From contig NC_088866.1 in the NCBI RefSeq assembly GCF_032884065.1, forward strand, positions 30,711,161-30,775,160: a stretch of DNA of 64,000 nucleotides. Reading direction: 5' to 3'. A program made the translations under genes and the position numbers. The notes under the pieces are model-generated. The model was given only the letters and a program-made list of their open reading frames with translations. It was not told the origin of the DNA and made no database searches. Each line of letters begins with the position of its first letter. Position 1 is the stretch's first letter. Origin of the DNA: Artemia franciscana. Taxonomy: Eukaryota; Arthropoda; Branchiopoda; Anostraca; Artemiidae. Positions 3,931 to 61,478 of the stretch are shown piece after piece.

Positions 3931-6223
3931 ACACTTTTTACACTTAGAAAATAACACTAAATCTTTTTTTTTGTTCTGTTTCTATATTAATCTCAATCGT
4001 GTCTTTCTGAAGGAAAGCATTCAAAAAAGATTATTCTGTTACAGACCATTCAAGAACCTTAGAAATAGTTGTTTTTTTCACCGTGTAAATAAATTCCTGC
4101 CTCTTTAAAAAGTTCTAATCTGATTTAAACTAACGGATTATAGAGCGGTCACTTTAACGTCTCTCTATTTTCTTTTTCTGTTATTCTGAACTTATTTTCA
4201 CCTTTTTAGCTTTTATGCAATGAGAGAATTTTCATATGTCTGAGGCTACCTTTTTCCTTTTGTATTCATGTCCTCTTTCCGCTTTATTCTTTTTTTAATT
4301 CCGCAATTTATGTTTTGATACCATGGGTAGTAAAAAAATAATTTAATTATAAAATTGTCATCTAAACATAAAGGGGCTCTTTTGAGAGCTCCTTTTTGAG
4401 GAGCTCTGTTTTTGAAGAGTTTTTGAGAAATTCTGCATTTACTTTTTAGCCAAAAGTAAATACAGAATCTAGAATTTGAAGCAGTCAGGTATTCCCGCAA
4501 ATGTAATCGAACAAAAGCTACATTGAGTAAAAACTAAAAACCTAAAACAAACAGAAATTATAATAGCCAATGAATTTGAACTTAAACAAATATAAATTAT
4601 AATAATTAGTTCAGTGTGGCTAAAGCCCCCAACCCCCGTTCAAGACCAAAGAACTATTTGCACTTTGAAAAAACTATAATATTTATAAGTTATTAAAAAA
4701 AAAGCCAATTGATTCTTCTGCAAATTTGGAATGTATTAAACAGTAAAGAAAACAAAGTGCTTCTAAAAAGGTAAAATACAAAGAATGGGTCACTTAATAA
4801 ATTCTAGATTTGGCCGTCTTTTTCAAGAAGTATCTTAGATTGTTGTCAAATTGAATATTTTTATTAAATCAAAGGTTGTTGAAAGAAATATAGTAATTTT
4901 TTGAACAATAGCTGTCAGGATATTGATTTAATGTGCTTGCCGGTGGTCACTATATATTTTCATATGTATCCAACATCCATACTTAAAAAAATAACCTGTC
5001 GTGCGTACTAAAGTCGGCTGTTTCGAACTTAAGGCTATAGTATGAGATGTTTTAATTCGTAATATTTATGGCCCTTGGTCAATGGAAACAGACACCAAAC
5101 GTCAGGAAAATGGAAATACAGTCGCATACAGTAAGAAACTGGAAATATATCAGACATCCAGTTAGAAGAACTGTTGAACCCAAATAAGTACTGAAACTGT
5201 AAAAAGAGTATGCTCGATATTAAACGATGAAAAGGTTGTTAATTATGAAAATGATCATGAAACGAATAATCTAACGTCACTCGATACTAATAAAAAAAGA
5301 CAATATTACATTTAAAGAAAAGGATCTTAACCTAAGTTAATCAAATATGTGCTACAAAATGAAAATATCTCATCTCTACCATGATGCACTGACGGTGAGC
5401 AGGCTATGTACGGAAAATTAGCAGTGAGGCTACGAAAATTTTTGACGAAATCCATATGCTTTGTGGACACACTACAGGAAGGATTTCTTAGTTAAGAGTA
5501 TAAATTCAGAAAAACATAAAAAAGAATTACATAAAAAGTAAGAAAAATATGAAAAAAGATCTTAAAACTTGAGGTTACTTTACAGCACTTTGTTTATGCT
5601 TCTTTTTCTCGGTAATTTTTAAGCGCTTAAAATGAACAATCAAAAGGACCCTAGCATTACATAATATATTTTCTCATCAGTAGCTGCTGAATGAGTTTCC
5701 ATCAATAAGCAGTTGCCATATTTAAAACCTTTCATATAATTATTGATTTGTTTCGGCTAGCTAACCAGCCGAAACCTTTTATGAAAACCTTTAATTGAAA
5801 ACTTTTTATGACAATCTCATCACAGTCCTCAGACTATTGATCAGAGAAGAATGAAAAAATATTTTTGAAGTAAAATATTATAATAATAAAATAGAGTTCT
5901 AAGCTTTATTTAAAACCGTTTTCTGTTAAAAGATATGGAGTATTGGATTAAAATCATTCACCCTGTCAGTAGCATTTCATGGATGTGGATCAATTTTCGA
6001 CAGCCAGTATGATTGAACAGCCTTAGTAATTTTGGAAGCTATGATTGGAAGTACAATTGAAGCAGACCTTGCTGCTGGCAGGATGACTAAGGTCAATCAA
6101 GATGAAGCTCAAGAACTTAGATTGATTTACTAAGAAAACTGGCTAGTTTGGCAGTGGCTACGAAAATCCATTTTGCAAGGCTGACAACGGGGACAATCTA
6201 AGCATCAAATTTAAATCTGCAAG
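3931..6223. other. AT-rich region upstream of TMEM223, no gene seen
   Basis: I see no convincing coding exon, RNA gene or repeat of known type here. The stretch just before the TMEM223 start (about 5900-6223) is less AT-rich and may hold the 5' UTR and promoter, but no TATA or initiator can be singled out. Confidence 0.4.
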
Positions 6224-9200
6224 ATGCTTAATTTGATAAGAAGTTTGAAATCTGCCACATTGAATAAAAACATATTTAAAACCACCCTTTTATCTCGTTT
6301 CATAGTGAATGAACCTTCCAAAACGCTTGCCAAAGATGTTCTCATCTATAAAAATGACAACACTAGGTACTTCAGGATTATGAGTTTCTTTTGTATGTCT
6401 CAATATGTTTTCTGGAATTATATGGCCGTGTGTTTTCTGAGAATGAACGAAACTAAATTAAAAGACGATGTGAAAGATACTTCATGGCTGTATAAAATTA
6501 ATTTTGGAGAATCAAAGTGGAGATATCCATTAGGAATTTTGAGTATGGTTTTGGGTAAGTTGTAGAAAATTTATAGTTAGGCTAAATATAAAACGGTAGT
6601 TTTATGTTTTTTTGCAGATTCTAGATAATGGCAGATTGAATTTAGTAAATATATACATGAATCTATTGCTGACATAAGGATAAGGTGAATACACTATGCC
6701 TTTCTAAATATCCTACTATAGCCTAATTGTTTCACTTGTAAATGCCCAACTCGCCCTGTTGCTGTGATTGTCCTATTAGTGTCCATAATTAATCTATCTC
6801 TGTTGTGCATCTGTTTAAATTTTTTTCTATGGGAACAGGTTCCTTGACCTGGCAAAACCATATGAACCAGTCTAGGCTATTTTGGATTAAAAAATATTTT
6901 TAAATATTTCAAATATTGAATGTTAATTATACAATGGCTAATTGATTTGAATAAAAATGGAAGTAAAAATGAAAATGTTATTAATACAGTTATGATAGTC
7001 TACATAGGTTATTATAGAGTAAGAATTGTGTTGTTTTGGTGTTTGTTTTGGTTTTATACAAACCTATGTTCTAGCTGGAATAATTTACATGCTACACTTG
7101 AAATACTGCAAATGAGCATATGGGTTTGAGTCCTTGTATTGCTAGTTATTTGGTTTAGAAGAACAGTCAGTCACATGACTATTAGCTCAGAGTCAACCCA
7201 GGTGTAAATAGATATATGGAGAGATATAGGGAAGGTAAACAGGAAGTGTGTACAAAGCATAGGATGGCTGGCTCCACCCCCCATTGAACTTCCTGGCTGA
7301 AGGACCATGAAACAGAAATCAGCACCACTATTGGGGACTTTAAAGTTCAGTGTTGTATTTTGTACCTTACCCTTACTCTGCCAATGCCCCCCTGATGATA
7401 AATTTATACTTAAGAATATGGTTGCAAATGGAAGAAAACATGACAGTCTAATTAATAAAAACATATGACATATTATGAAGTAAGAATTTCAGCTGAAGTG
7501 TTTTGTAGACACCACAGGGCTTGTGCCAGATAGGACAGAGCTCTAGTATATTTGCAAAACTAAAACATTATGCTAAAAAACAAAATTCTTACAACAAAAC
7601 AATTCTTACAATAAAAAACAAGATTGTTGTGTTTCTTTGCATTGTTGTCTACATTTGTCAATCATTTCAAACTGTGTTTTTTTCTGATTCTTTTGAAACC
7701 ATGAAGGCAAAACTGAACTTGAAAAGTAAGGAATAGAGCTACACATTAAGTAACTCATCATAAGATGAAAAACAGCAAAAAAAAATGCTTTATTAGGGTT
7801 ATATAGGGACCATCAAGTGGAAGGGTAGGGTGCTCTGTCAGAAACACAAATTCTATTTATGGTAAGAGCATAAAATAACAAATCCAATAGAACTATATTT
7901 TATTTTATTAAGATTTTTCCCACTGTAGAGCTGCTGGTAACAGTCTAGAGTTACAGCTCTTCTGAAAGAAATATGTTAATAAAATGAAAGTAGTACCATC
8001 AAAAGAAATCCTTAGATAACTCCTAGCTCTGTAATTTAAGGTAATTTGCTTCTTTTTTTTTATTCTATGCTATTTTGAATATCATTACCTTAAATTGCAA
8101 TTGCCAGCAATAAGGAAAAGTCCTGTGAATGCTGGTCAATAATGATGGTGACTCAACTCTTTAGGTGCATCCTATACCATGAGCCAAGGTTTTCTGTACC
8201 AGTCTTTGTTAACTGTAGACTTGAAGGCTTCAACACTGGAAGACATTACAGTATTATGGGTTAGGGAGTTCCATAGGTTGACTGTGCAATTAGAAAAAAA
8301 AAATTATATCACAGCCTTGTGTTGGCACATTTTTGGTACAGCTTCAAGGTGTTCTCTAGTACTCAACAAACTTACTATCTAGAACAGGTTGGGAATAACA
8401 CTCTGGTCATGTACTAACTTGTATGTCATTAATACATCCCCTTGCATATGTCTATATGTGAAAGATTTTAATTTGAGCTCATATAATTGGGTAGGATATG
8501 GAAGAAGATGAAATCTGTTTGTGCATTTAGTTACACATTCCTGTGCTGATTCCAGAGTTGATATCTCATCCTTATTGACTGGAGTAGCAATACCCATCCC
8601 AAGTTCTAAGTTTGGTCTGATCATGCTTTTTAAGAGCTTGGTGACCACAGCTAGAGTTCTGCTATACAATTTTCTTTTTATTAAACAAAGAATTTGGCTG
8701 GCACTCTCTACTACAAACTGTGTGTTAAAACTAAACTTAAGCTTTTTGTCAACCAAGACTCCCAGATCTTTCTTGCTAGGACTACATAGGAGTGGCTGTT
8801 TTGAACCAGTGTAGGATGCCATAGCATACTGGCACAGAGGGTTATTTGTTCCAAGGTGAATAACTTTGCATTTCAGGGTATTAAATTTAAGCTGCCTGGA
8901 TCAGTCATGATTGATTTTCCAACAATGGACTTAACCCTCCTTGATGACTCCATAAATAGACCTTAAAGCATATTTCTCCATTACTAATAATGGTCATATG
9001 TCATAGGTTCTTTGTTAAAATGGGTTATCTATTGTTGCTTTGCTTCATACAATCTAGTTCTGTCTGGGATTTTTTACAATATTTAACAAAATATTATTTG
9101 AAATGGTTTAAAAAGTGAATTATATTGGATGGAAACGTGATAATCTGATTTTTAAGAATATCCTGCATATTATAAAGTATGTATTTCATTGTTGTATGGC

Positions 9201-15200: not shown

Positions 15201-18200
15201 ATAGAAAGTATTAGTATTTATATACCTTTTTATTTCTAGGAACTTCAATTGCTATTGCAGGTTTCTTATACTGTGCAAGAAATGTTAAACTTTTAGTTTT
15301 GCGAAAAGATGGAAAATCAGTGTCCTTTGTTACATATGGCCCATTTGGTAGAAATATTATCTTTACTACTCCTCTTGAGAAGGTAATTTATTACTTTTAT
15401 TTTAAATCTTAGCCATCAAATTATAAACACTAAGTATATTTGATCATGTGAAATGTTTGTATGGGGCACCAGCTCACAGACGTTTAGCAAGGGGAGCAAG
15501 GATTTCTAAAGTTTTGCTTTTTAATGAAGGCACAAAATAGGGATTTTTTAATATGGGGGGGGGGTAATTATTCTTAATTTTTTATGACAATACCCAAAAT
15601 GGTATTTTTGAAAATTTAAACAGGTTAATGGAATATAGATTACAGCAGTTAGAGTTAATATCATTTCTAAATGATGAACGCTACCCAGTTTCCGTTTTAA
15701 TCGTAGCAACAACGCCAGCAATGCTTTACTTGTAAAAGCACTATTTTTTAGAGAGAAATAGAGATGCTCTTAGAAAAGTTAAGCACGTTTTTGCAGTCTA
15801 CTTGCATCATTTCCTTGTGAACAGAATCATTACCAAGGTCCCCTTCTAGATTTTGAAGTATACTTTTTTTTTCACTGAAAAGAAAATGGAAAAACACTGC
15901 ATAATTCTCCACATCCCCCCCCCATAGATTTTGAAAAAGACATTTCCCCCCTCTTGCATTTTATGAATTGACGTCACTAATTTTAGTATGTAGAGGGGTC
16001 AATTAAGGATATTTCAGGTCGTTTTTAGTCGTTACCTAACCCTTAAAAATTTATTTTTAAATAATGTTCGTTTATATTAATATTAATTACTCTTACTTAT
16101 TACTATTTGTATAGTGTTTTATATAATATTACCTGCTCGTATATCCGACCGTAAGTGAAATTCTCTTGAATTTTTTCTAGATGCTTTTCCAAAAATAAAG
16201 TGACTTATTTTAATACTTGTCTAAAAAAGAAACAACAGTGCAAAAAAATCATTAACAACAAAAGTGCATAAGTACTAAACCAACACCATGGACACAAAAA
16301 AAAACACAATAGACGAAATAACACAATAAAAAAAACAGTATCAATTTATAAACAGGAATTACATTTGACACAACTTAAGCTGGCCAGATAGAAGAATTGA
16401 ATAAACGCAAATAACTAAAAATCAACACTATAAACCTGAAAAATCAATGAACAAAACACAAAAGAATACCATGACAAAAGAAAATATTTGTCGGTGCATA
16501 AAAAGGAGCTTTCATATATCTTGGTCAACTTTTCTGGCGAGGCGCAAGAACAAAATTAACACCATGAGCACAGAATTAACACCATAAAGACCAAAAATGT
16601 TATGAACAAAAATACGTAAGAACTCCATGAAAATGTTTACCAGTACATGAAAGCAATCAACGCTATATCAAACCTTTCACTAGCAGACTGAAGAGAGTTA
16701 TGGGTAACAACTGAACCCGCCCTGCTCTGTATCTTCTGGATGGTTGCCAACAAAATTTTATTAGTACCAGCATACAGCAGGCATTCATATTACACGGTGA
16801 CCAGAGTTGCCGACAGCGGTACAATTGTACCTTTTGGTACATTTCACCTCTAAAGGTACATTCTGGTACAATCACAAATTTCCTGGTACATTTTACAAAA
16901 TGTGGTACAATATGGTACACTAAGATTTGACTGGGCGTCAGGACGCAGCGAGCGGAGGGAATTGTAGTTTTTATATATAGATGAGCAGCTATTTGGAGGA
17001 GTGACACCAAAATGGTTTCTGTAGGGGAAAGGAGGTCTCCCAAATATCTTTGAAAGAAGATATCTGATACTTCGTTCTCTTTATTGTAATGTAATTTTCC
17101 GACCGTCCACGTATTGTGCGAAGCGAAATATTTTTGTCTTGCCCGTAGCACAATACGAAAAAAAAGATATGGTACAATTTTTTGATCAGTGATACAATTT
17201 TAGGGCGTTTTGCGGTACTTTTTCTTCCGAAGCGTTGGCAACACTTGCGGTGACTCTAATAAAACACTAGTAAAGTAGCATGATTGAGCTGGGCAATAGA
17301 AGTTTTTTTCAAGAAGAGTGATCTCCAGCTTTCTTGCACAGAACGTTTTTTACCTGATTTTGGTGGGTTTTCCAAGAGAGATCTGTGGTAAAGTAGCTTT
17401 ATTTCGTGAATGAAGTAGGGGACTTTATTTCGTGAATGAAGAAAATTTCCACCAGCTTGCGATAATTATCTTTGCTCTTTCTTTTCTTCTTGTAATGATG
17501 GTATAAATTAACTTCAGTCTGACTATCTTAGAGATAACATACCACACTTTTATGATGAAGTCAGGACAAACACATTTGAAGCCTAATTTCACTTCTACAT
17601 TGTTTTTGGTGCCAAGAAAATTTGGAAACTGAATACAATTCTAGACTAGGCTAACTAGAGAGAATGGCCTTTAGACTTTTATTTCAAGAGGATTTCACTT
17701 TGGCAATGAGAAGATGTCATAATTCCTTTGTACTGTGTTTTATTTGTCATTTTAAATATGATTTTTATTGCTTGTTGTTATCTTTATATCTTCCTGTGTG
17801 TGCTTTGAAATAGTACTTCCTACTTTGAAAATTTTTAGCTCGCATTATTCCAATATTGAAATGCTCATGTTAGCTTATAGTAATAGGGCAATAAAAATGA
17901 AATCTGATCCTTTAAATCAGTTAAATAGAAACTTACACAAGCATATACGCATTTGAAAAAAATAAGAAAAACAACATGGAAATCAGTTTTTAATTCAAAA
18001 GATACTTTGTGTAAGTATGCCCTTTCAACATTTAACAAGTACCAAGTTTAAAAATAAAGGACGTGTGTTAGAAATTGACAGAAAATGAGATAAAAAAATG
18101 TATTATCACGTAGATGTAGGAACTGTTACCTTCCTGATTGTTATAGGAAAAGACAGACACTGCCATTATTGGCAGTAAAGTGGGTATAAAAGAAGTGACT

Positions 18201-24188: not shown

Positions 24189-26784
24189 ATGGCACTTGGT
24201 ATTAACCAAGTGACATATAGCAATCGCAAATTCTGTCGGTCTGTCTGTTGGTCCCGGTTTTGCTACTTTAGGCACTTCCAGGTAAGCTAGGACGATGAAA
24301 TTGGGCAGGCGTATCAGGAACCGGACCAGATTAAATTAGAAATAGTCGTTTTCCCGATTTGACCATCTGGGGGGGGGGGCGTTAATTCGGAAAAAATAGA
24401 AAAATTGAAGTATTTTTAACTTACGAACGGTTGATCAGATCTTAATGAAATTTGATGTTTGGAAGGATATCGTATCTCAGAGCTGTTATTTTAAATCCCG
24501 ACTGGATCTGGTAATATTGGGGGGCGGGAGTTCGGAGGGGGAAACCTAAAATCTTGGAAAACACTTAGAGTGGAGGGATCGGGATGAAACTTGGTGGGAA
24601 AAATAAGCACAAGTCCTAGATACATGATTGACATAACCGGAACGGATCCGCTCTTTTCGGGGTAGTTGGGGGGGGGGGGTAATTCTGAAAAATTAAAAAA
24701 ATGAGGTATTTTTAACTTACGAACGGGTGATCGAATCTCTATGAAATTTGATATTTAGAAGGACCTCGTAACTCAGATCTCTTATTTTAAATCTCAACCG
24801 GATCCAGCGTAATTTGGGGGGGGGACAGTTGGAGGGAACCGGAAATCTTAGAAAATACTTAAAGCGGTGAGATCAGGATGAAACTGGATGGGAAGAATAA
24901 AAACCTGTCTAAGATACATGACTGACATAACTGGACCGGATCTGCTCTCTTTTGGGTAGTGGGGGGGGTAATTCTGAAAAACTAAAAAAATGAGGTATTT
25001 TTAACTTACGAACGGGTAATCGGATCTCAATGAAATTTGATATTTAGAAGGATATCTTGTCTCAGAGCTCTTATTTTAAATCCCGACCAGATCCGGTGAC
25101 ATTGGGGTGGAGTTGGGAGGGGGAAACTTAAAATTTGGAAAACACTTAGAGTGGAGGGATCGGGATGGAACTTGATGGGAAAAATAAGCACAAGTCCTAG
25201 ATACATGATTGACATAACCAGAACGGATCCGCTCTCTTTGGGGTAGTTGTGGGGGGGGATTAATTCTGAAAAATAGAAAAAATGAGGTATATTTAGCTTA
25301 CGAACGGGTGATCAGATCTCAATGAAATTTGATATTTAGAAGGATATCGTGTCTCAGAGCTCTTATTTTAAATCCCGACCGGATCTGGTGACATTGGGAG
25401 GAGGGTTGGTAGGGGGAAACCTAAGACTTGGAAAACACTTAGAGTGGAGGGATCGGGATGAAACTTGGTGGGGAAAATAAGCACAAGTCCTAGACACATG
25501 ATTGACATAACCGGAACGGATCCGCTCTCTTTGGGGTAGTTGGCGGGGGGGGGGGGGTTAATTCTGAAAAAATAGAAAAAATGAGGTGTTTTTAACTTAC
25601 GAACGGGTGATCGGAGCTCAATGAAATTTGATATTTAGAAGGATATCATGTCTGAAAGCTCTTATTTTAAGTCGCGACTGGATCTAGTGACATTGGGGGG
25701 AGTTTGTGGTGGGCGAACCTAAAATCATGGAAAACGTTTAGATTGGAAGGATCGGGATGAAACTTGGTGGGAAAAACAAGCAGAAGTATTAGATACGTGA
25801 TTTACATAATTGGAACGGATCTGCTCTATTGGGGGGGGGGGGTAATTCTGAAAAATTAGAAAAAATGACGTATTTTCAACTTACGAAGGAGTTATCGGAT
25901 CTTAATGAAATTTCATATTTAGAAGGACCTCGTAATTCAGATCTCTTATTTGAAATCTCAACTGGATCCAGCGTAATTGGGGGGGGGGTGAGATCAGGAT
26001 GAAGCTGGATGGGAAAAATAAAAACCTGTCTAAGATACGTGACTGACATAACCGGACCGGATCTGCTCTCTTTGATGGAGTTGGGGGGCTAATTTTGAAA
26101 ATTGAGGTATTTGTAACTTACGAAAGGGGGACCAGATCTTAATGAAATTTGATATTTAGAAGGATCTTGTGCTTTAAAAGTCTAATTTTAAATTCCGACC
26201 AGATCCTGTGACATTGGGGGGATTGGAGGGGAAAACCGGAATTCTTGAAAAACGTGAAAATTGGGGTATTTTTATCTTAAGAATAGGTGATCGGATCTTA
26301 ATGAATTTGATATTTAGAAGGAATTCATGTCTCAGAGTTCTTATTTCAAATCCCGACCAGATCTTTTGACATTGGGGGGAATTGAAGGGGGAAATCTTGG
26401 AAAACACTTTGAGTGGAGGAATCGGGATGAAGCTTGGTGGATAGAATAAGCAAATGTCCTTGATACGTGATTGACCGAACCGTACTGGATTCGCTCTCTT
26501 TGGGGGGTGGGGTGGGAGGAGGGGTTCAGTGATTTGGCGAGGTTGGTGCTTCTGGACGTGCTAGGACGATGAAAATTTGTAGGCGAATTGAAGGCGAATT
26601 AAAATTTGATGAATTTTGATATATAGAAGGACATCGTGACTCAGAGCTCTTATTTTAAATCCTGACCGGCATTAAGCCTCTTATTTTCCTTCTAAATCAA
26701 TCTATTGATTCATAGAATTTTGTTAGAGCTCATACCATATGATCTCTTGGCTCTTAGCTCTTCATGCCTCGTCACAAGTGCCAT
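24189..26784 (+). mobile_element. Element of about 290-bp tandem modules, copy 1
   Basis: The left end holds ATGGCACTTG (24189-24198) in the stem-loop CACTTGGT-ATTA-ACCAAGTG, and the right end holds CAAGTGCCAT (26775-26784), a 10-bp inverted match. Between them the landmark ACTTACGAACGGGTGATC recurs near 24420, 24716, 25009, 25300 and 25595, with variants near 25881, 26116 and 26275. Each module also has a TTGGGG G-run, TTTTAAATCCCGACCGGATC and GGGATGAAACTTGGTGGG. The open frames in it are module translations, not genes. The unique header (CCCGGTTTTGCTACTTTAGG) and tail (AGCTCTTAGCTCTTG) match copy 2 at 49304. Confidence 0.75.
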
Positions 26785-28119: not shown

Positions 28120-28191
28120 GGGGTCGTCCGGGATTCGAACCCGGGACCTCTCGCACCCTAAGCGAGAATCATACCCCTAGACCAACGACCC
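28120..28191 (-). tRNA. tRNA-Pro (anticodon AGG)
   Basis: Read on the minus strand, the 72-nt sequence folds as a full cloverleaf. The 7-bp acceptor stem is GGGTCGT/ACGACCC with discriminator C. The D arm carries the A box (TGGTCTAGGGG), the anticodon stem CTCGC/GCGAG encloses loop TTAGGGT giving anticodon AGG, and the T arm GGGTTCGAATCCC is the B box. There is no intron and CCA is not encoded, as expected for a eukaryotic nuclear tRNA gene. It lies about 80 bp from the left end of the 6.4-kb TIR element. Confidence 0.95.
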
Positions 28192-36540: not shown

Positions 36541-38663
<2,123 letters not shown>

Positions 38664-41691: not shown

Positions 41692-42240
41692 TATCAAACA
41701 GTTCGTGGTAACGAACTGTAGTAAGGAGCGACCCGGCTCAATAGTAAACGAAACTCTAAAAATGTGGAATTTCGTATTTTTTGCCAGAAGACAAATCACG
41801 GGTGCGTGTTTATTTGTTTGTTTGTTTAGTTTTTTTTTCTTTTCTCCAGGGTCATTGTACCGACCAAGTGGTCCTAGAATGTCGCAAGGGGCCCCTCCCA
41901 CGCTCATTTTTCTCCAAAGTCAACAGATAAAAATTTGAGATAGTCATTTTGTTCCGTATAGTCAAAAACCATAATAACTATGTCTTTGGGAGTGACTTAC
42001 CCCCCCCCCCACAGTCCCTGGGGGAGGGGCTGCAAGTTACAAACTTCGACCAGTGTTTACATATAATAATGGTTATTGAGAAGTGTACAGTCGTTTTCAG
42101 GGGATTTTTTTGGTTTTGGGGGTGGGGTTGAGGGGAGGGGGCTTTTGGGTACTTTTGGATATCCCCGATTATATGTCGATTTTTCTTAATCGTAAGATGG
42201 GCAAAAAGGTGGACTCGGATTTTACATCCAAAATAATTTT
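41692..42240. mobile_element. Foldback family left arm (hairpin terminus)
   Basis: It starts TATCAAACAGTTCGTGGTAA, a hairpin (CAGTTCG/CGAACTG), then GGAGCGACCCGGCTCAATAG. The order matches the left arm at 46363. It ends near 42240 where the LINE begins, so the LINE was inserted here or the arm is truncated. Confidence 0.7.
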
Positions 42241-45234
42241 CAGGCTGTACTAAGACATGATTTATGCATAAATAATGAAAAAATATTTGAGTCAATTTTT
42301 ATTGAAATTCCAATTAACGCTAAGAAAAGGGTAATAATTGGCGAAGTATATCGTTCTCCAAGCGGATCTGTGACTGAATTTCTTGAAACATTAGATGACG
42401 TTCTTAGGAAAGTTCTTGCTGAAAAATATGAAGTTATATTGATGGGTGACTTTAACCTTGACCTTACGAAATCGTCGTCTAGGCAGGCTTCTAATCTCTT
42501 GTCTTTACTAATTTCGTACGGATTGGCTCCTTGTATAAACATACCGACAAGGATTTCAAACCAGTCAGCAACATTAATTGACAATATTTTTTCATCGCTA
42601 CACTCCATTAGGAATGAAGTACTGCTTTCTGACATTTCCGACCATTTGCCAGTTTCAGCCGTGTTTCAAGTCCTCCAAAATCCACAAAGATTAGTCCCCC
42701 AGGATAAACCGAGATTTTGCTGCTCACCAGTGGAGCTGGATAGACTGAAAGAAGATCTTGGTACATATAAATGGGACTTTTCTCCACCAGAAAATATTAG
42801 TTTAGGCAATTATAATGACATATTTGGCTGGTTTTATGACACTGTTAAGGAAAAATTCACGTCTTATTGTCTAAAAGCTCCTTTAAAAAATCCTCACATG
42901 GTTAACATCTGGAGTCCTAAAATCAATAAAAAGGAAGCAGAACCTTTGGAAGGAGTACAAAAAAAGACCAAATAAGGCCAAGTTAGAAGCATTTAAGTTG
43001 TACCGTAATTTTCTGAAATCGATTATTCGCAGAGCTAAAACAGTATATTTTACAAAAAGATTTGTTGATTGCGGCAAAAATATAAAAAAGACGTGGGACG
43101 TGATTAAGGAAGTTAGTCGGCCGTCCATGAAACCAGAAGGTCTCCCTAAGTTTCTTATTGTAGACGATCAACTTGTAACAGAAAAAGGCCAAATTCGACA
43201 TCATATGAATAAATTCTTTGCGGAGATAGGTAAAAAAAACTGCTAATAGCGTTTCTTATTCCTCTATCTCACAGTCTTGGAAGCAGTTCTTAGGTCCCTC
43301 GTGCTTGAAATCAATGGTTCTTGGGGAGGTTACGGTGCAGGAAATTAGAAATATTGTTCTGTCTTTGAAGAATTCTTCAGCAGGTTTCGACCAAATTTCT
43401 GCTAAAGTAATTAAACATATTCTTCCATCGATTATCATCCCAATTTACCACTTGATTAATAGGTCATTTGAACTAGGAGTATTTCCCCAACGTCTTAAAC
43501 TTGCTCGTGTTATAGCTCTCTTTAAAGGAAGTGACAGAAAGGATCCTGGGAACTACAGACCGATCTCTCTTCTGTCAGTGTTCTCTAAGATATTTGAAAG
43601 AGCAATGCTCAAACGTCTGGTGAAATTTCTTGAAGCTAAATTTTTTTTTCCATCAGCATCAGTTTGGGTTTCGCGCAAAGTATTCTACAGAACATGCTTG
43701 TAATAGACTTCTTCAGTTTATACGACGATCTTTAGATTCTAATCTTATTCCTGCAGCCATTTTTCTTGATGTAAAGAAAGCTTTTGACAGCCTTACACAT
43801 AAGATTCTCATTGGTAAACTTTGTCATTTTGGTGTCCGTGGGGAAGTATTGTCTTGGTTCTCGTCATACCTAACTGACAGATCTATCGCCACAGAAGTTA
43901 CAGACGAAAATTTTCAATTGAATACGGAGTACCCCAAGGTTCTATTCTTGGACCAACCCTCTTCCTCATATATGTGAACGATCTCTACCGACTTTTTAAC
44001 ACCCTAATTAACAATGTTTGCTGTGGATTGTGTCACAAATCTTACTCTCAGAGTGCGTTGGTGTTCACACCTAATAGTCAAGAAGAATTAATAGCATTTG
44101 CAGATGACACTACTTTAGGTGCTGCAGCTCCGGATGAATCATCCCTTATTCTAAAGCTTCAAGCAATGACTGAGAAAATACTCTTTTGGTTTGACATAAA
44201 TCAACTAACTTTAAATGTAAAAAGTCCTACCTTCTTATTTTTTCTCGTAAAGGTGTGAGCTGCCCCACAATTACTGAGCTTCATACACCAAGAGGCTCCA
44301 TAAGTCTTCCCCCGAATCGATATGTGCGATTCCTGGGAGTTCTTTTGGATGAAAACTTATCATTTAAGTGGCATGTTCAAATAATAAGAGTGAAAATTTC
44401 CCGTGGACTTGGGATCATCCGAAAACTAAAGCGTTTATTCCCTTTCCCTATCCTCCGTCTTTTATACTTTTCTCTGATTTACCCTTATATATGTTACTGT
44501 TCGTCTGTGTGGATGTTCACATTTCCCTCGGTACTTGCTCCTATTCACAATCTTTATGAGAAAGCGGCAAGAATTCTCCAGTCGGCTACAAACACTCCTC
44601 TTGACCTCCTCAAAATGAAAGATATTTATGTTTTATCTCTATCTTCGTTGGCATATCAATATTTCCAGGGAGATCTCCCATGTTGTTTTTCGGGAATGCT
44701 TAAACTAGTAGGGGAAGTAAATTTATATATCGTTCGTAACCGGGAGGATGTGATGATTCCAGCTATTCCCTCGGTTCGTTCAGACTTCGGCCTGGCTGTG
44801 ACTGTTGGATGTGCTTGGAACTTGGTTCCCGCTGAGATCCGGCAGTCACGAACACTTGACTCCTTTAAGAGACAGATGAAAAGTTTCTTATTAAAGGCTT
44901 CTTATTAAATGTTTCTTATGGTTTATTTATTATTATTTTTTTTCCTTTTTTTGGGTTGTTGTTTTGTTGGTGTTGTATCCTCGATGACGCGAGAATTTTA
45001 ATTTGTATTTCATTATCGGGTAATGTGAGGGTTGCTGTTTCGTGGGGACTGCCGGTGAGTTGATTTCTTTTCCTTACATATTTATATTTAGATGTTTTTT
45101 AGTATGTTTATGACAAGTTTTTGTGATTCTTTATTTATTTTATGCCGTTTCCCAAATAACGGGCCATTGAGCCCTTTGGGATATTGTTTTTGTTATTGTT
45201 ATTTTATGAAAATAAATAGAACTTGAACTTGAAC
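42241..45234 (+). pseudogene. CR1/L2-like LINE, 5'-truncated, with at least five frameshifts
   Basis: The endonuclease part (from 42241) shows GEVYRSPSGSVTEF, LMGDFNLDL and SDISDHLPVS. It is followed by a linker, then RT: SAGFDQISAKVIKHI, DPGNYRPISLLSVFSKIFER, QFGFRAKYSTEHA, FLDVKKAFDSLTHK, YGVPQGSILGPTLFLIYVND, LIAFADDTTL (catalytic ADD) and FLGVLLDENLSFKWHV. The final frame stops at 44908. Frame changes near 42960, 43230, 43640, 43925 and 44220, several at A or T runs, kill it. The 3' UTR ends in GAACTTGAACTTGAAC (about 45219-45234), the short direct repeat typical of CR1/L2 tails. The N-terminal endonuclease is missing. Confidence 0.9.
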
Positions 45235-49303: not shown

Positions 49304-52080
49304 ATGACACTTGGTATTAACCAAGTGACATATAGCAGTCGCCAATTCTGTCGGTCTGTCGGTCTGTCGGTCCCGGTTTTGCTACTTTAGGCACTTCCAG
49401 GTAAGCTTGGACGATGAAATTTGGCAAGCGTATCAGGGACCGGACCAGATTAAATTAGAAATAGTCGTTTTCCCGATTTGACCATCTGGGGGGGAGTGGG
49501 GGCCCGGTTAATTCACAAAAATAGAAAAAATGAAGTATTTTTAACTTATCAGCGGGTTATTGGATCTTAATGAAATTTGATGTTTGGAATGATACTGTGT
49601 CTCAAAGCTCTTATTTTAAATCCCGACCGGATCTGATGACATTGGGGGGAGTTGGAGGGGGGAAACCTAAAGTCCCGGTTTTGCTACTTTAGGCACTTCC
49701 AGGTAAGCTAGGACGATGAAATTTGGCAAGCGTATCAGGGACCGGACCAGATTAAATTAGAAATAGTTGTTTTCCCGATTCGACCATCGGGGGGGGGGGG
49801 GGGGAGTAGGGGTCGGTTAATTCGGAAAAATAGAAAAAATGAAGTATTTTTAACTTATGAGCGGGTTATTGGATCTTAATGAAATTTGATGTTTGGAATG
49901 ATATTGTGTTTCAGAGCTCTTATTTTAAATCCCGACTGGGTCTGATGACATTGGGGGGAGTTGGAGGGGGGAAACCTAAAATCTTGAAAAACACTTAGAG
50001 TAGAGGGATCGGGATGAAACTTGATGGAAAAAATAAGCGCAAGTCCCAGATACATGATTGACATAATCGGAACTGATTTGCTCTCTTTGGGGTAACTGGG
50101 GGGGGAGTAAGTCTTAAAAATTAGAAAAATGAGGTATTTTCAACTTACGAACGGGTGATCGGATCTCAATGAAATTTGATGTTTAGAAGGATATCGTGTC
50201 TTAGAGCTCTTATTTTAAATCCCGACCGGATCTGGTGATGGGGGCGGGGAGTTGGGAGGGGGAAACCTAAAACTTGGAAAACACTTAGAGCGGAGGGATC
50301 GGGATGAAACATGGTGGGAAAAATAAACACAAGTCCTAGATAGATGATTGACATAAATGGAACGGATCCGCTCTCTTTTGGGTAGTTGGGGGGGGGGGGG
50401 GGGGTATTTCTGAAAAAAATAGGTACTTTTAACTTACGAACGGGTGATCGGATCTCAATGAAATTTGATATTTAGAAGGATATCGTGGCTCAGAGCTCTT
50501 ATTTTAAACCCGACCGGATCTGGTGACATTTGGGGGGGGGGGGTTGGGAGGGAGAAACCTAAAAATTGGACAACACTTAGAGTGGAGGGATCGGGATGAA
50601 ACTTGGTGGAAAAAAAACGAGTCCTAGATACATGATTGACATAACCAGAACGGATCCGCTCTCTTTGGGGTAGTTGGGGAGGGGGGTTAATTCTGAAAAA
50701 TTAGAAAAAATGAGGTATTTTTAACTTACGAACGGGTGATTGGATCTCCATGAAATTTGATTTTTAGAAGGATATCGTGTCTCAAAACTCTTATTTTAAA
50801 TCCTGACCGGATCTGGTGACATTGGGGGAAGTTTGGGGTGGGGTGACCTAAAATGATGGGAAACGCTTAGATTGGAGGGATTGGGATGAAACTTGGTTGG
50901 AAAAATAAGCAGAAGTCTTGCATACGTAATTTACATAATTGGAACGGATCCGCTCAATTGCGGGGGGGGGGGGGAATTCTGAAAAATAAGAAAAATGACG
51001 TATTTTTAACTTACAAAGGAGTGATCGGATCTTCATGAAACTTCATATTTAGAAGGACCTCGTAACTCCGATATCTTATTTTAAATCATTTTAAATCTCA
51101 ACCGGATCATGCGTAATTTGGGGGGGGGGGCAGTTGGGGGGGGACCGGAAATTTTAGAAAATACTTAAAGCGGTGAGATCAGGATGAAACTGGATGGGAA
51201 GAATAGAAACCTGTCTAAGATACGTGACTGACATAACTGGACCGGATCTGCTCTCTTTGGTGGAATTGGGGGGGGGTAATTTTGAAAATTGAGGTATTTG
51301 TAACTTACGAAAGGGTGACCAGATCTTAATGAAATTTGATATTTAGAAGGATCTTGTGCTTTAAAGTTCTAATTTCAAATTCCGACCAGATCCTGTGACA
51401 TTCGGGGGAGTTGGAGGGGGGAACCGGAATTCTTGAAAACATGAAAATTGGAGTATTTATATCTTACGAATAGATGATCGGATCGTAATGAAATTTGATT
51501 TTTAGAAGGAATTCATGTCTCAGAGCTCTTATTTCAAATCCCGACCAGATCTTTTGACATTGTGGGGATTTGGAGGGGGAAATCTTGGAAAAACACTTGG
51601 AGTGTAGGAATCGGGATGAAGCTTGGTAGATAGAATAAACAAATGTCCTTGATACGTGATTGACAGAATCGTACTGGATTCGCTCTCTTTGGGGGAGTTG
51701 GGGGGAGGGGTTCAGTGATTTGGCGAGTTCGGTGCTTCTGGACGTGCTAGGGCGATGAAACTTGGTAGGCGTATCAGGGAGCTGCACAATTTGACTTGAT
51801 AAAGTCGTTTTCCCAGATTCGACCATCTGGGGGGCAAAAGGGAGAGGAAAAATTAGAAAAAATTAGGTATTTATAACTTACGAGTGGGTGATCGGATCTT
51901 AATGAATTTTGATATTTAGAAGGACTTTGTGACTCAGAGCTCTTATTTTAAATCTTGACCGGCATTAAGCCTCTCATTTTCCTTTTTAAATCAATCTATT
52001 GATTCATAGAATTTTGTTAGAGCTCATACCATATGATCTCTTGGCTCTTAGCTCTTCTCGCCTCGTCACAAGTGCCATAT
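49304..52080 (+). mobile_element. Element of about 290-bp tandem modules, copy 2
   Basis: It has the same header stem-loop, modules and tail as the copy at 24189, in the same orientation. Module landmarks occur near 49551, 49854, 50152, 50437, 50728, 51012, 51307, 51465 and 51880. Part of the header is duplicated at 49673-49790 as an extra unit, so the array changed length after spreading. Confidence 0.75.
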
Positions 52081-54239: not shown

Positions 54240-55782
54240 ATTATTGCTGATCTCTTTCAGTCATGATCCTGTTTTGTCGTGGTAAAATTAAAGAAATTCT
54301 TTGAAGATATTCAAAAAATAACATTTTTGTAAATCTTCTAATAACTTTGTCGCATGAAATATACAGCACTGATGGCATAAGTAACATGTACATTTGTATG
54401 AAAAAAGATGATATATTTACCATTATTATAAGTAGACGAAAGTCTGATGTTTTTACTAATCTTAATGGAATTTCAAAAAAGGTAGAAATACTATAACCAT
54501 TAATATTGGAAATAGAGCTTGTGCTTTAGCTGTTTTTACTAAATATGTTTCTTCTGTGAATGAATGTCTTTCCCAGTGTTGCCAACAGCGGTACAATTGT
54601 ACGATTTTGGTACATTTCACCTCTAAAGGTACATTCTGGTACAATTAAAAATTTCCTGGTACATTTTACAAAATGTGGTACAATATGGTACAATAAGATT
54701 TGACTGGGCGTCAGGACGCCCAGTCAATTGTAGTTTTTATTTGTTTTCTCTTCTAGAGTTTTAAGTTTTCCTTTACACATTTATTTAAGTGCCTGTTTTT
54801 GGCCTCTTGCGGTCATAATATAGCGTGAAGCAGTACAGCCATCTGTAGGGTAAGCACAAAATAGGTGAGGAGATAAAATAGGTATTTGGAGGAGTGACAC
54901 CAAAATGGTCTCTGCAGGAGAAAGGAGGTCTCCCAAATATCTTTGAAAGAAGATATGTGATACTTTGTTCTCTTTATTCTAATGTAATTTTCCGATCGTC
55001 CACGTTTTGTGCGTAGCGCAAAAAAAAAAATTCGTCTTGCCCATAGCACGACACGCAAAAAAAAGATATGTTACAATTTTTTAATCAGTGGTACAATTTT
55101 GGAGCGTTTTGTGGTACTTTTTCTTCCGAAGCGTTGGCAACACTGGTCTTGCCCCATCTATAATTGCACCTGAGATATAAGTTGTGTCTATTGGCTCCTG
55201 AGGGTTCAAAAGAATTGAGATTTTTTGCTTTCTAAAAACAAAAACTATATTTATGATCACCTGAGAGCTCATTGGGACAATTCTTACAATCCTATCTACG
55301 ACAATACTATCAATTTTCATGGTGAATTCATTGCAGTATTTATAAGGGGACTGTCCTTCTGGTGCAAGGATAAAAATTAGTAGAGATGGCGATACTGTAA
55401 TAAAAGCAATTATTGATGCAACTCCGAATATTCTGGATTCAGGTCAATTCTGAATTTGCTTTCTAAAACAAGAATTTAAAAGCTTTATATTAGAGACAGT
55501 GTTGCCACAGAAAAATGAAAAAATGAATGAAATGGCAAAAACTCTTGACAAAAACATACAATACCATAGGGGTATGCCGTTCAGTGACAATTTTATAGTC
55601 ATCAATACTGTAATTACGAAAGAAATGAATCTTGAGTAAATACTTTGGTATTTTATAGTTTTATTAGCGAGGTTTGGATTTACTAAATTATCTAAATAAC
55701 TGATTAATAACTTATTAGATAATAGTGTAAGACGGAGTGTTGTAAGCACTATACCAGTGGTGCCGAAATATTGTAGATGTTA
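54240..55782 (-). pseudogene. GPCR-like seven-helix receptor pseudogene split by a hAT MITE
   Basis: On the minus strand an open frame runs from 55779 to a TGA at 55444-55446. It continues in the same frame to the MITE edge near 55146, resumes at 54573 with no frame change once the MITE and one target duplication are discounted, and shifts near 54462 to end at 54241. The pieces total about 316 residues. Seen: a hydrophobic first segment (YFGTTGIVLTTLRLTLL), a helix ending in WYC, a segment with TVSPSLLIF, a YKYCNEF stretch like a second extracellular loop, a hydrophobic stretch ending RKQK, a TAKAQALFPILMVIV block like helix 6, and LLMPSVLYISCDKVIRR like helix 7. Order, length and loop cysteine fit a rhodopsin-like, perhaps peptide-type, receptor. 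The NPxxY and DRY motifs are not intact. The stop, frameshift and insertion argue for a pseudogene. Confidence 0.5.
54574..55145. mobile_element. Non-autonomous hAT-type MITE, copy 2
   Basis: The termini are perfect 13-bp inverted repeats, CAGTGTTGCCAAC at the left and its complement at the right. Flanking 8-bp direct repeats are GTCTTTCC (54566-54573) and GTCTTGCC (55146-55153), with one mismatch. An 8-bp target duplication with CAG-type ends is the hAT hallmark. The interior is rich in GGTAC motifs and has no convincing transposase. It shares most of its length with the copy at 16802. It interrupts the GPCR-like frame. Confidence 0.85.
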
Positions 55783-56464
55783 ACCTGTGACTCTTGTAAA
55801 CCAGTGCCTGAATTAAGCATCTTTGAAAGCTTGAAAACCAAAATCAAGCCTAAGTTTAACAGTAAAAACTTTTAAAAGAGTACTTCAAATAATTCCGAAT
55901 AGTTCAAAACTAATTTTATTATTGGCTTTATTGTTGTCCTCTGAATCACCTCTATGATTTCTAAATTCTTAAAACTAATGTATAAGCAGATATAAGGTTC
56001 AAACTAGAATGGTATAAAAAAGGTAAAAAAATGTATTAAAAACTAATGTGTAAGTGGATGTAAGGTTCAAATTAGAAAGGTATATCCAACAAAAAAATAT
56101 TTTCTATAAAAGTGTTTGAAAGCATAAAACAGTTCAGTAGCTCTAAGATAACTACTAAAAATCGAAAAACATCAGTAAGACAAATGAGGTAAAATTAATT
56201 TTGAATGGTTTCCCAATATCTTTTGAAACCATTTTTTACATCACTTTAATCTACTTTGTTTTGTTTGACTGCGCTATTAGTGGCAACGTTTCCAACACTC
56301 CGCTTTAAACGATTTTCTAGATAAAAATTGCCCTGTGAATCAATTCAGTGTCATTTATTACTAACGAGGGCTCGTTTCAGGATTAATCCTGAAGCTGTTT
56401 GAAAATTGTTTCGGCTGTACTTGAATACGGAGCTATGGTAGCAAAGACCATATTCTTTGATAGA

Positions 56465-60458: not shown

Positions 60459-61478
<1,020 letters not shown>

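What the first reader, a model, noticed from the sequence alone, without database searches (positions are those of the whole stretch)
54240..55782. A GPCR-like reading frame cut by a hAT MITE, with the pre-insertion frame still readable
The 572-bp MITE has 13-bp perfect TIRs and an 8-bp target duplication, and sits in a minus-strand frame that looks like helices 1-5 of a receptor on one side and helices 6-7 on the other. Ignoring the MITE and one duplication copy, the codons run on without shift (...GAIIDGAR to HSFTEETYLV...). Besides this there is one stop and one frameshift, so the insertion may be an early or late step in the loss. The receptor class is from motif impression only.
Basis: partly seen in the sequence, partly recalled or inferred. 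Interest (0 to 1): 0.72.

Follow-up and report, generated by a model that had tools for sequence, protein, structure and literature searches.

The report
Brine-shrimp receptor pseudogene with transposon insert
A recently dead receptor gene, apparently of the brine shrimp, carries a small jumping element, and an intact sister copy 20 million bases away shows the empty site; the dead gene belongs to a family of single-exon surface receptors that standard domain searches miss and that could include chemical sensors.

Summary
The 572-bp element (54574-55145) has perfect 13-bp terminal repeats and an 8-bp target duplication (7 of 8 bases alike). It sits in a minus-strand seven-helix frame (54241-55820). 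An intact relative 20 Mb away on the same contig (335 codons) holds the site empty, with one 8-bp copy, and reads across it in frame. Corrections: the gene starts at 55820; it has two frameshifts, not one, plus one stop and two in-frame indels.

Assembly statistics point to Artemia franciscana (brine shrimp). The gene belongs to a single-exon family (51 places found, about 28 with open frames of at least 280 codons) in which no Pfam 7tm model was found. A nine-member profile matches the NPY Y2 receptor at E=1.7e-7 over all seven helices; the reversed profile matches nothing. So it is a divergent class A-like GPCR family.

The element probably came late: it has 3 private substitutions against about 10% neutral divergence between the gene copies, and five other lesions exceed expectation since its arrival (P 0.002-0.13). 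dN/dS tests do not settle this.

The pseudogene is ordinary. The receptor family, a candidate chemoreceptor set of untested function, is the interesting part.

The parts
54241..55820 (-). Pseudogene of a class A-like GPCR (single exon; start ATG 55818-55820, stop TAA 54241-54243), interrupted by the element
   Evidence: Alignment to intact relative L010
55154..55820 (-). 5' part of the gene: N terminus and helices 1-5
54241..54565 (-). 3' part of the gene: helices 6-7 and C-terminal tail
54574..55145 (.). Non-autonomous hAT-like MITE, 572 bp; longest stop-free frame 85 codons
54574..54586 (.). Left 13-bp terminal inverted repeat
55133..55145 (.). Right 13-bp terminal inverted repeat
54566..54573 (.). 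Target-site duplication, left copy (GTCTTTCC)
   Evidence: a single copy in the empty site of the relative
55146..55153 (.). Target-site duplication, right copy (GTCTTGCC), one mismatch to the left copy
55747..55763 (-).
55444..55446 (-). In-frame TGA stop (codon 126), before helix 4
55368..55385 (-). Stretch with a 3-bp in-frame gain relative to the intact relatives
55268..55283 (-). Stretch with a 9-bp in-frame loss (helix 5)
54469..54488 (-). Stretch with a 1-bp frameshift in a T run (helix 6)

Best explanation
The locus is a pseudogene of a single-exon, divergent class A (rhodopsin-like) GPCR, most likely of Artemia franciscana. Most simply, a stretch carrying two neighbouring receptor genes was duplicated within contig C4 (now at 30.77 and 50.89 Mb; about 10% neutral divergence). 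The two genes at 50.89 Mb and the neighbour at 30.78 Mb kept open frames. The window copy was under coding constraint for a good part of its history (shown: its coding part diverged less than its flanks). It then lost function and collected a stop, two frameshifts and two in-frame indels, and late in that decay took a hAT-type MITE into the loop between helices 5 and 6 (order inferred). The element would have used a cut-and-paste transposase made elsewhere, with 8-bp staggered target duplication (inferred from the duplication and the empty site). The working family members most likely sit N-terminus-out in the membrane and signal through G proteins (inferred from similarity and topology). Ligand and tissue are unknown, and a chemosensory role is a guess from the birth-and-death pattern.
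For: Family and intact relatives. Empty site with one 8-bp copy in the relative. Coding divergence 58 of 987 compared bases against 280 of 2970 in the flanks; pairwise dN/dS 0.45, like three pairs of intact neighbour genes, 0.41-0.57. Element young: 3 private substitutions and one 1-bp gap against four of its closest copies; the two nearest differ at 8 of 571 and 9 of 570. Five lesions seen where 0.91 would be expected since the element's arrival (P 0.0024; 0.008 with half the distance to the nearest copy; 0.13 at the upper 95% bound on its age). Class A: 17-member profile, all 7 PDB sequences at E<=10 are class A GPCRs, best E 0.0026; 9-member profile, NPY Y2 receptor E=1.7e-7 over profile positions 7-289; the nine proteins reversed, 0 hits at E<=10. 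Landmarks in 25 aligned members: TM1 Asn 25, TM3 Cys 25, ECL2 Cys 25, Arg in the column 25 after the TM3 Cys 21, TM7 Tyr 24. Seven helices in 3 of 3 proteins examined, with basic residues on the loops that place the N terminus outside.
Against: The branch codon model does not resolve when constraint was lost: omega on the window branch 0.54 (0.79 when the sister branch, at 0.055, is also free); equal omega not rejected (p 0.44), neutral omega=1 not rejected (p 0.12). Polarised counts 7 syn/19 nonsyn against 6/6, with 20 unassigned; Fisher p 0.27. Profiles of two narrower sets (A1, A4) had no PDB hit. Single-sequence phmmer with the intact relative gave 32 hits, 31 PCNA and one antitoxin, no GPCR; its best, E=1.1e-7, is a chain matched in three stretches, the other PCNA sequences score E 0.036-0.51; I judge it chance. 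The window gene's own clade lacks the TM3 Arg and the TM7 Pro. The AlphaFold model of the 5' part was uninformative (mean pLDDT 39). The frameshift in a T run could be a sequencing error. Species: contig C1 reaches past 70.5 Mb, whereas the paper gives 67.3 Mb for its longest scaffold and 6486, not 6468, scaffolds. No expression data.
Confidence: 0.82

Rival explanations
1. The MITE insertion was the inactivating event; the stop, frameshifts and in-frame indels accumulated afterwards in a dead gene.
For: The element breaks the frame by itself (572 + 8 bp is not a multiple of three). Coding constraint is visible over a good part of the history (dN/dS 0.45 overall), so loss was not ancient. With the upper 95% bound on the element's age, five later lesions have P=0.13.
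Against: With the point estimate of the element's age, five lesions in the time since insertion have P=0.0024. The window branch has an excess of nonsynonymous changes in point estimate, though not significantly.
Confidence: 0.17
2. The family is not GPCR but the insect-type 7TM ion-channel chemoreceptors (Gr/Or), a known arthropod chemoreceptor class.
For: Seven helices, tandem clusters and many pseudogenes are also typical of Grs (recalled).
Against: Topology by basic loops is N-out, whereas insect-type chemoreceptors have the opposite topology to GPCRs (passage in PMC2680840). Frames are single-exon and, by eye, lack the TYhhhhhQF motif; almost all Daphnia Grs have that motif's preceding phase-0 intron (same passages). 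Landmarks and PDB hits are class A. Pfam (which holds 7tm_7 and 7tm_6, recalled) gave no such match at E<=10 for 17 members, though its filters drop most weak matches. A genome search with 7tm_7 did not complete.
Confidence: 0.03
3. Assembly artefact: the frameshifts are polishing errors, or the 30.77- and 50.89-Mb copies are haplotypes of one locus.
For: One frameshift lies in a T homopolymer. The genome holds contigs that look like haplotype duplicates (C107 and C6464).
Against: The published assembly reports QV 47.6. The stop, the 9-bp loss and the element are not typical errors. Flanks differ by 9.4% and the copies lie 20 Mb apart on one contig.
Confidence: 0.05

Closest known systems
Class A (rhodopsin-like) GPCRs, nearest by profile: neuropeptide Y receptor Y2 and prolactin-releasing peptide receptor
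   Same: Whole 7TM part aligns (profile 7-289, E=1.7e-7); TM1 Asn, TM3 Cys, Arg 25 residues on, ECL2 Cys, PxxY-like TM7, N-out topology
   Different: About 290-350 aa, single exon, partly in clusters; no acidic residue before the Arg in the 21 members that have it (by eye); PP or AP instead of NP in TM7; not found by Pfam 7tm_1; the window's clade has Asp/Glu in place of the Arg and Ser in place of the TM7 Pro
Nematode serpentine chemoreceptors and other lineage-specific chemosensory GPCR families (nematodes, gastropods)
   Same: Large lineage-specific 7TM families with tandem copies and many pseudogenes (general pattern, recalled)
   Different: No Pfam chemoreceptor model matched at E<=10 (17 members); those families are in other phyla; no function known here
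Crustacean Grs/GRLs and IRs
   Same: Chemoreceptor classes of crustaceans; birth-and-death evolution (recalled)
   Different: Different topology, gene structure and fold class
hAT-superfamily MITEs (hallmarks recalled)
   Same: 8-bp target duplications, short TIRs starting CAG, several hundred bp, many copies, no long frame
   Different: Autonomous partner not identified

Membership tests
Class A (rhodopsin-like) GPCR | Seven helices with extracellular N terminus | tested here: met
   Hydropathy gives 7 helices in 3 of 3 proteins examined. In L010 the odd-numbered (putatively inside) loops 1,3,5,7 carry 20 K+R and loops 0,2,4,6 carry 6; L013 21 and 6; L015 15 and 6. A prediction, not a measurement
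Class A (rhodopsin-like) GPCR | Sequence homology over the whole 7TM domain to proven class A receptors | tested here: met
   A3 profile to NPY2R E=1.7e-7; L010 to A3 E=2.2e-21; reversed control 0 hits; profiles A1 and A4 had no hit; indirect for the window gene itself
Class A (rhodopsin-like) GPCR | TM3-ECL2 cysteine pair | tested here: met
   25 of 25 aligned members
Class A (rhodopsin-like) GPCR | (D/E)R(Y) at the end of TM3 | tested here: inconclusive
   Arg at the class A spacing of 25 in 21 of 25; Asp/Glu instead in the four members of the window gene's clade; no acidic residue before it
Class A (rhodopsin-like) GPCR | NPxxY in TM7 | tested here: inconclusive
   No Asn at the first place (Pro 23 of 25, Ala 2); Pro at the second in 20 of 25, Ser in the window gene's clade; Tyr 24 of 25
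Class A (rhodopsin-like) GPCR | G-protein coupling | not testable with these tools
   -
Pfam 7tm_1 (PF00001) | Match to the curated model | tested here: not met
   No 7tm family in 17 members; none of the 148 listed genome matches of PF00001 lies at a family place, compared by eye (147 of 293 candidates scored)
Insect-type Gr/Or (7TM channels) | N-in topology, TYhhhhhQF, typical phase-0 intron | tested here: not met
   (by eye)
hAT MITE | 8-bp target duplication | tested here: met
   8 of 8 copies read, of 41 matches (4 perfect, 4 with one mismatch), and an empty site in the relative
hAT MITE | Short TIRs; small; no transposase; multicopy | tested here: met
   (longest frame in the element 85 codons; no domain search of it was run)
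hAT MITE | Mobilised by a hAT transposase with matching ends | not tested
   Autonomous partner not sought
Candidate chemoreceptor family | Expression in chemosensory cells, ligand response | not testable with these tools
   -

The most novel reading that the evidence does not exclude
Artemia carries an unrecognised, single-exon, lineage-specific class A-like GPCR repertoire (about 28 open and 23 partial or broken places found, some of them probably haplotype duplicates) that works as chemoreceptors. It would be a GPCR-based chemical sense in a crustacean, next to the channel-type receptors, with one clade that has lost the TM3 Arg and the TM7 Pro yet keeps open, constrained genes.
Probability: 0.3. 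Interest if true: 0.75.

Novelty: new variant of a known kind. Interest (0 to 1): 0.45.

Why it matters
The pseudogene with its empty-site relative is a clean but ordinary case of gene death with a late transposon. What may matter is the family it revealed. Rump et al. [quoted passage not shown] The Artemia genome paper (PMC11492255, term counts in the main text) has no occurrence of 'receptor', 'sensory' or 'G protein'. A single-exon receptor set in which Pfam models find nothing would be skipped by domain-based surveys of arthropod chemoreceptors, and is directly testable in a cheap laboratory animal.

Tried and rejected
Pfam searches with the pieces or the family gave nothing usable: US10 at E 0.03-0.07, below its cut-off, so a viral origin was rejected; the other weak Pfam matches (best E 0.0011, a citrate transporter) differ from member to member and look like chance. 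Single-protein PDB search: PCNA, judged chance. AlphaFold on the window's 5' part gave pLDDT 39 and was not used for a fold search. My first MITE alignment had four copies in the wrong orientation and is void; one search replaces it (the flanks printed were still used for the duplications). A retrocopy origin was rejected: the family is single-exon anyway and the flanks are shared with the intact relative. dN/dS tests of the time of loss were indecisive.

Not achieved: genome searches with the C10-type receptor (L034), 7tm_7 (PF08395), LEA_5 (PF00477), hemocyanin (PF00372), L013, P0003 and the first piece did not complete, so the census is a lower bound and the Gr repertoire was not counted. 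Relatives in other animals could not be searched.

Full report
Genome. The window is C4:30711161-30775160 of a 1,270,528,402-base assembly in 6468 contigs. Contig C17 is 45,252,357 bp long, which is exactly the scaffold N50 given for the Artemia franciscana assembly of PMC11492255 (1,270,721,445 bases, 6486 scaffolds, 21 chromosomes, GC 34.7%; passages). Not everything agrees: the held genome has 18 fewer contigs and 0.19 Mb less, and its C1 reaches past 70.5 Mb where the paper's longest scaffold is 67.3 Mb. I take it for a revised version of that assembly, so the window is most likely brine shrimp.

The element. 54574-55145, 572 bp, perfect 13-bp terminal repeats, flanked by GTCTTTCC and GTCTTGCC. 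The genome search returned 41 matches; 40 of 382 candidates were scored, so this is a lower bound. In the eight copies whose flanks I read (of 41 matches), all have an 8-bp duplication, four perfect and four with one mismatch. Compared with four of the closest copies (L002-L005), the window element has 3 private substitutions and one 1-bp gap; the two nearest differ from it at 8 of 571 and 9 of 570 bases.

The broken gene. The best match to piece 55147-55443 elsewhere in the genome is L010 (C4:50.886 Mb), 85% identical, in an uninterrupted frame of 352 codons, 335 from the first ATG. DNA alignment shows the window's gene running from an ATG at 55818-55820 to a TAA at 54241-54243, with the element after codon 227, a TGA at codon 126, 1-bp frameshifts at codons 23 and 256, a 9-bp in-frame loss at codons 182-184, and a 3-bp in-frame gain. 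The intact relative holds the site empty with a single 8-bp copy. Both loci have a second, open receptor gene nearby (L013, about 6 kb beyond the window; L012), so most simply a stretch with two genes was duplicated. An unplaced contig (C3942) has one open and one broken copy of the neighbour gene.

Order of events. Flanks differ at 280 of 2970 bases (JC 0.10), the coding part at 58 of 987. Window gene against relative: dS 0.1075, dN 0.0486, ratio 0.45; three pairs of intact neighbour genes give 0.41-0.57. So the pair was under coding constraint for a good part of its history. Changes polarised with the three neighbour genes: window 7 syn/19 nonsyn, relative 6/6, 20 unassigned; Fisher p 0.27. 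A branch codon model gives omega 0.54 on the window branch (0.79 with the sister branch free too), neither equal omega (p 0.44) nor omega 1 (p 0.12) rejected. With 0.121 indels per substitution from the flanks, the element's 3 private substitutions predict 0.91 other lesions since its arrival; five are seen (P 0.0024; 0.008 with half the nearest-copy distance; 0.13 with the upper 95% bound). The element was therefore probably a late arrival in a gene already failing, but this is not settled.

The family. Proteins L015 and L048 as queries brought 41 and 62 matches. After merging there are 51 places, 29 with an open frame of at least 280 codons at the match. I discount C5116, whose match is split over frames, leaving 28; 25 of these were fetched and translated, three were not. 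Dropped before the count: the C47 row, two repeat rows, and 13 repeat rows and four rows with E>0.1. C107 and C6464 carry three gene pairs in mirrored order: one pair 99% alike, one pair close neighbours in the tree, the third not compared directly. They are probably two haplotypes, so the number of genes is lower. The other 23 places are partial or broken, a birth-and-death pattern.

Class. No 7tm family of Pfam matched any of 17 members at E<=10, with the caveat that the filters drop most weak matches. By eye, none of the 148 listed PF00001 matches in the genome is at a family place (147 of 293 candidates scored). But a profile of 17 members finds seven PDB sequences at E<=10, all class A GPCRs (best E 0.0026). 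A profile of nine members outside the window gene's clade finds two, the NPY Y2 receptor at E 1.7e-7 over profile 7-289 and its fusion construct. The same nine proteins reversed find nothing. Two narrower profiles find nothing, and the intact relative alone finds only PCNA and an antitoxin. L010 matches the nine-member profile over 282 columns at E 2.2e-21. In 25 aligned full-length members the TM1 Asn, TM3 Cys and ECL2 Cys are invariant, an Arg stands 25 columns after the TM3 Cys in 21, and TM7 shows P at the first motif place in 23, P at the second in 20 and Tyr in 24. The 25-residue spacing is that of C3.25-R3.50 in class A (numbering recalled). Seven helices and basic loops give an N-out topology. 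In a tree of 25 members plus the window's 5' part, the window groups with the L010 gene (support 0.999) on a branch twice as long; it and the four members lacking the Arg (Asp/Glu) and the TM7 Pro (Ser) form one group (support 1.000).

Literature. Ten searches of open-access full text, with capped lists, showed no paper whose title or printed start of abstract describes such a family in Artemia. PMC8177520 was seen by passages, PMC11492255 by passages and term counts, PMC2680840, PMC7510291, PMC6497305 and PMC10827361 by passages; no paper was read whole. Subscription papers and sequence-database annotation were not searched, so I claim only that I did not find it described.

What is shown and what is inferred. 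Shown: the element and its duplication, the lesions, the empty site in an intact relative, a single-exon 7TM family, and profile similarity to class A receptors. Inferred: the species, transposition by a hAT transposase, late arrival of the element, G-protein signalling. Guessed: chemoreception.

Noticed in passing
16802-17245: A second, shortened copy of the same MITE family (about 89% alike, middle shortened) in the window.
   Followed up: partly
L028, L029, L030, L032 (C4 and C3942): Four open receptor genes of the window gene's clade have Asp or Glu where the other 21 aligned members have the TM3 Arg, and Ser instead of the TM7 Pro, while pairwise dN/dS of the neighbour genes is 0.41-0.57.
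   Followed up: partly
42196-44908: Broken non-LTR retrotransposon: endonuclease match and a reverse-transcriptase match below its cut-off.
   Followed up: partly
24368-25990 and 49826-51425: Two arrays of one satellite with a unit of about 290-300 bp, about 24 kb apart, roughly 78-84% alike in the alignments shown.
   Followed up: no
6215-6565: An open frame matching the TMEM70/TMEM186/TMEM223 family (E 1.6e-12), probably an exon of a mitochondrial protein gene (location recalled).
   Followed up: no
38377-38655 and 60461-60621: Long pure or nearly pure TA repeats (139.5 and 80.5 copies).
   Followed up: no
28120-28191: tRNA-Pro (agg), minus strand.
   Followed up: no
C107:1100092-1127303 and C6464:83747-135744 of the own genome: Three receptor gene pairs in mirrored order on two contigs, at least one pair 99% alike, probably uncollapsed haplotypes in the assembly.
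   Followed up: no
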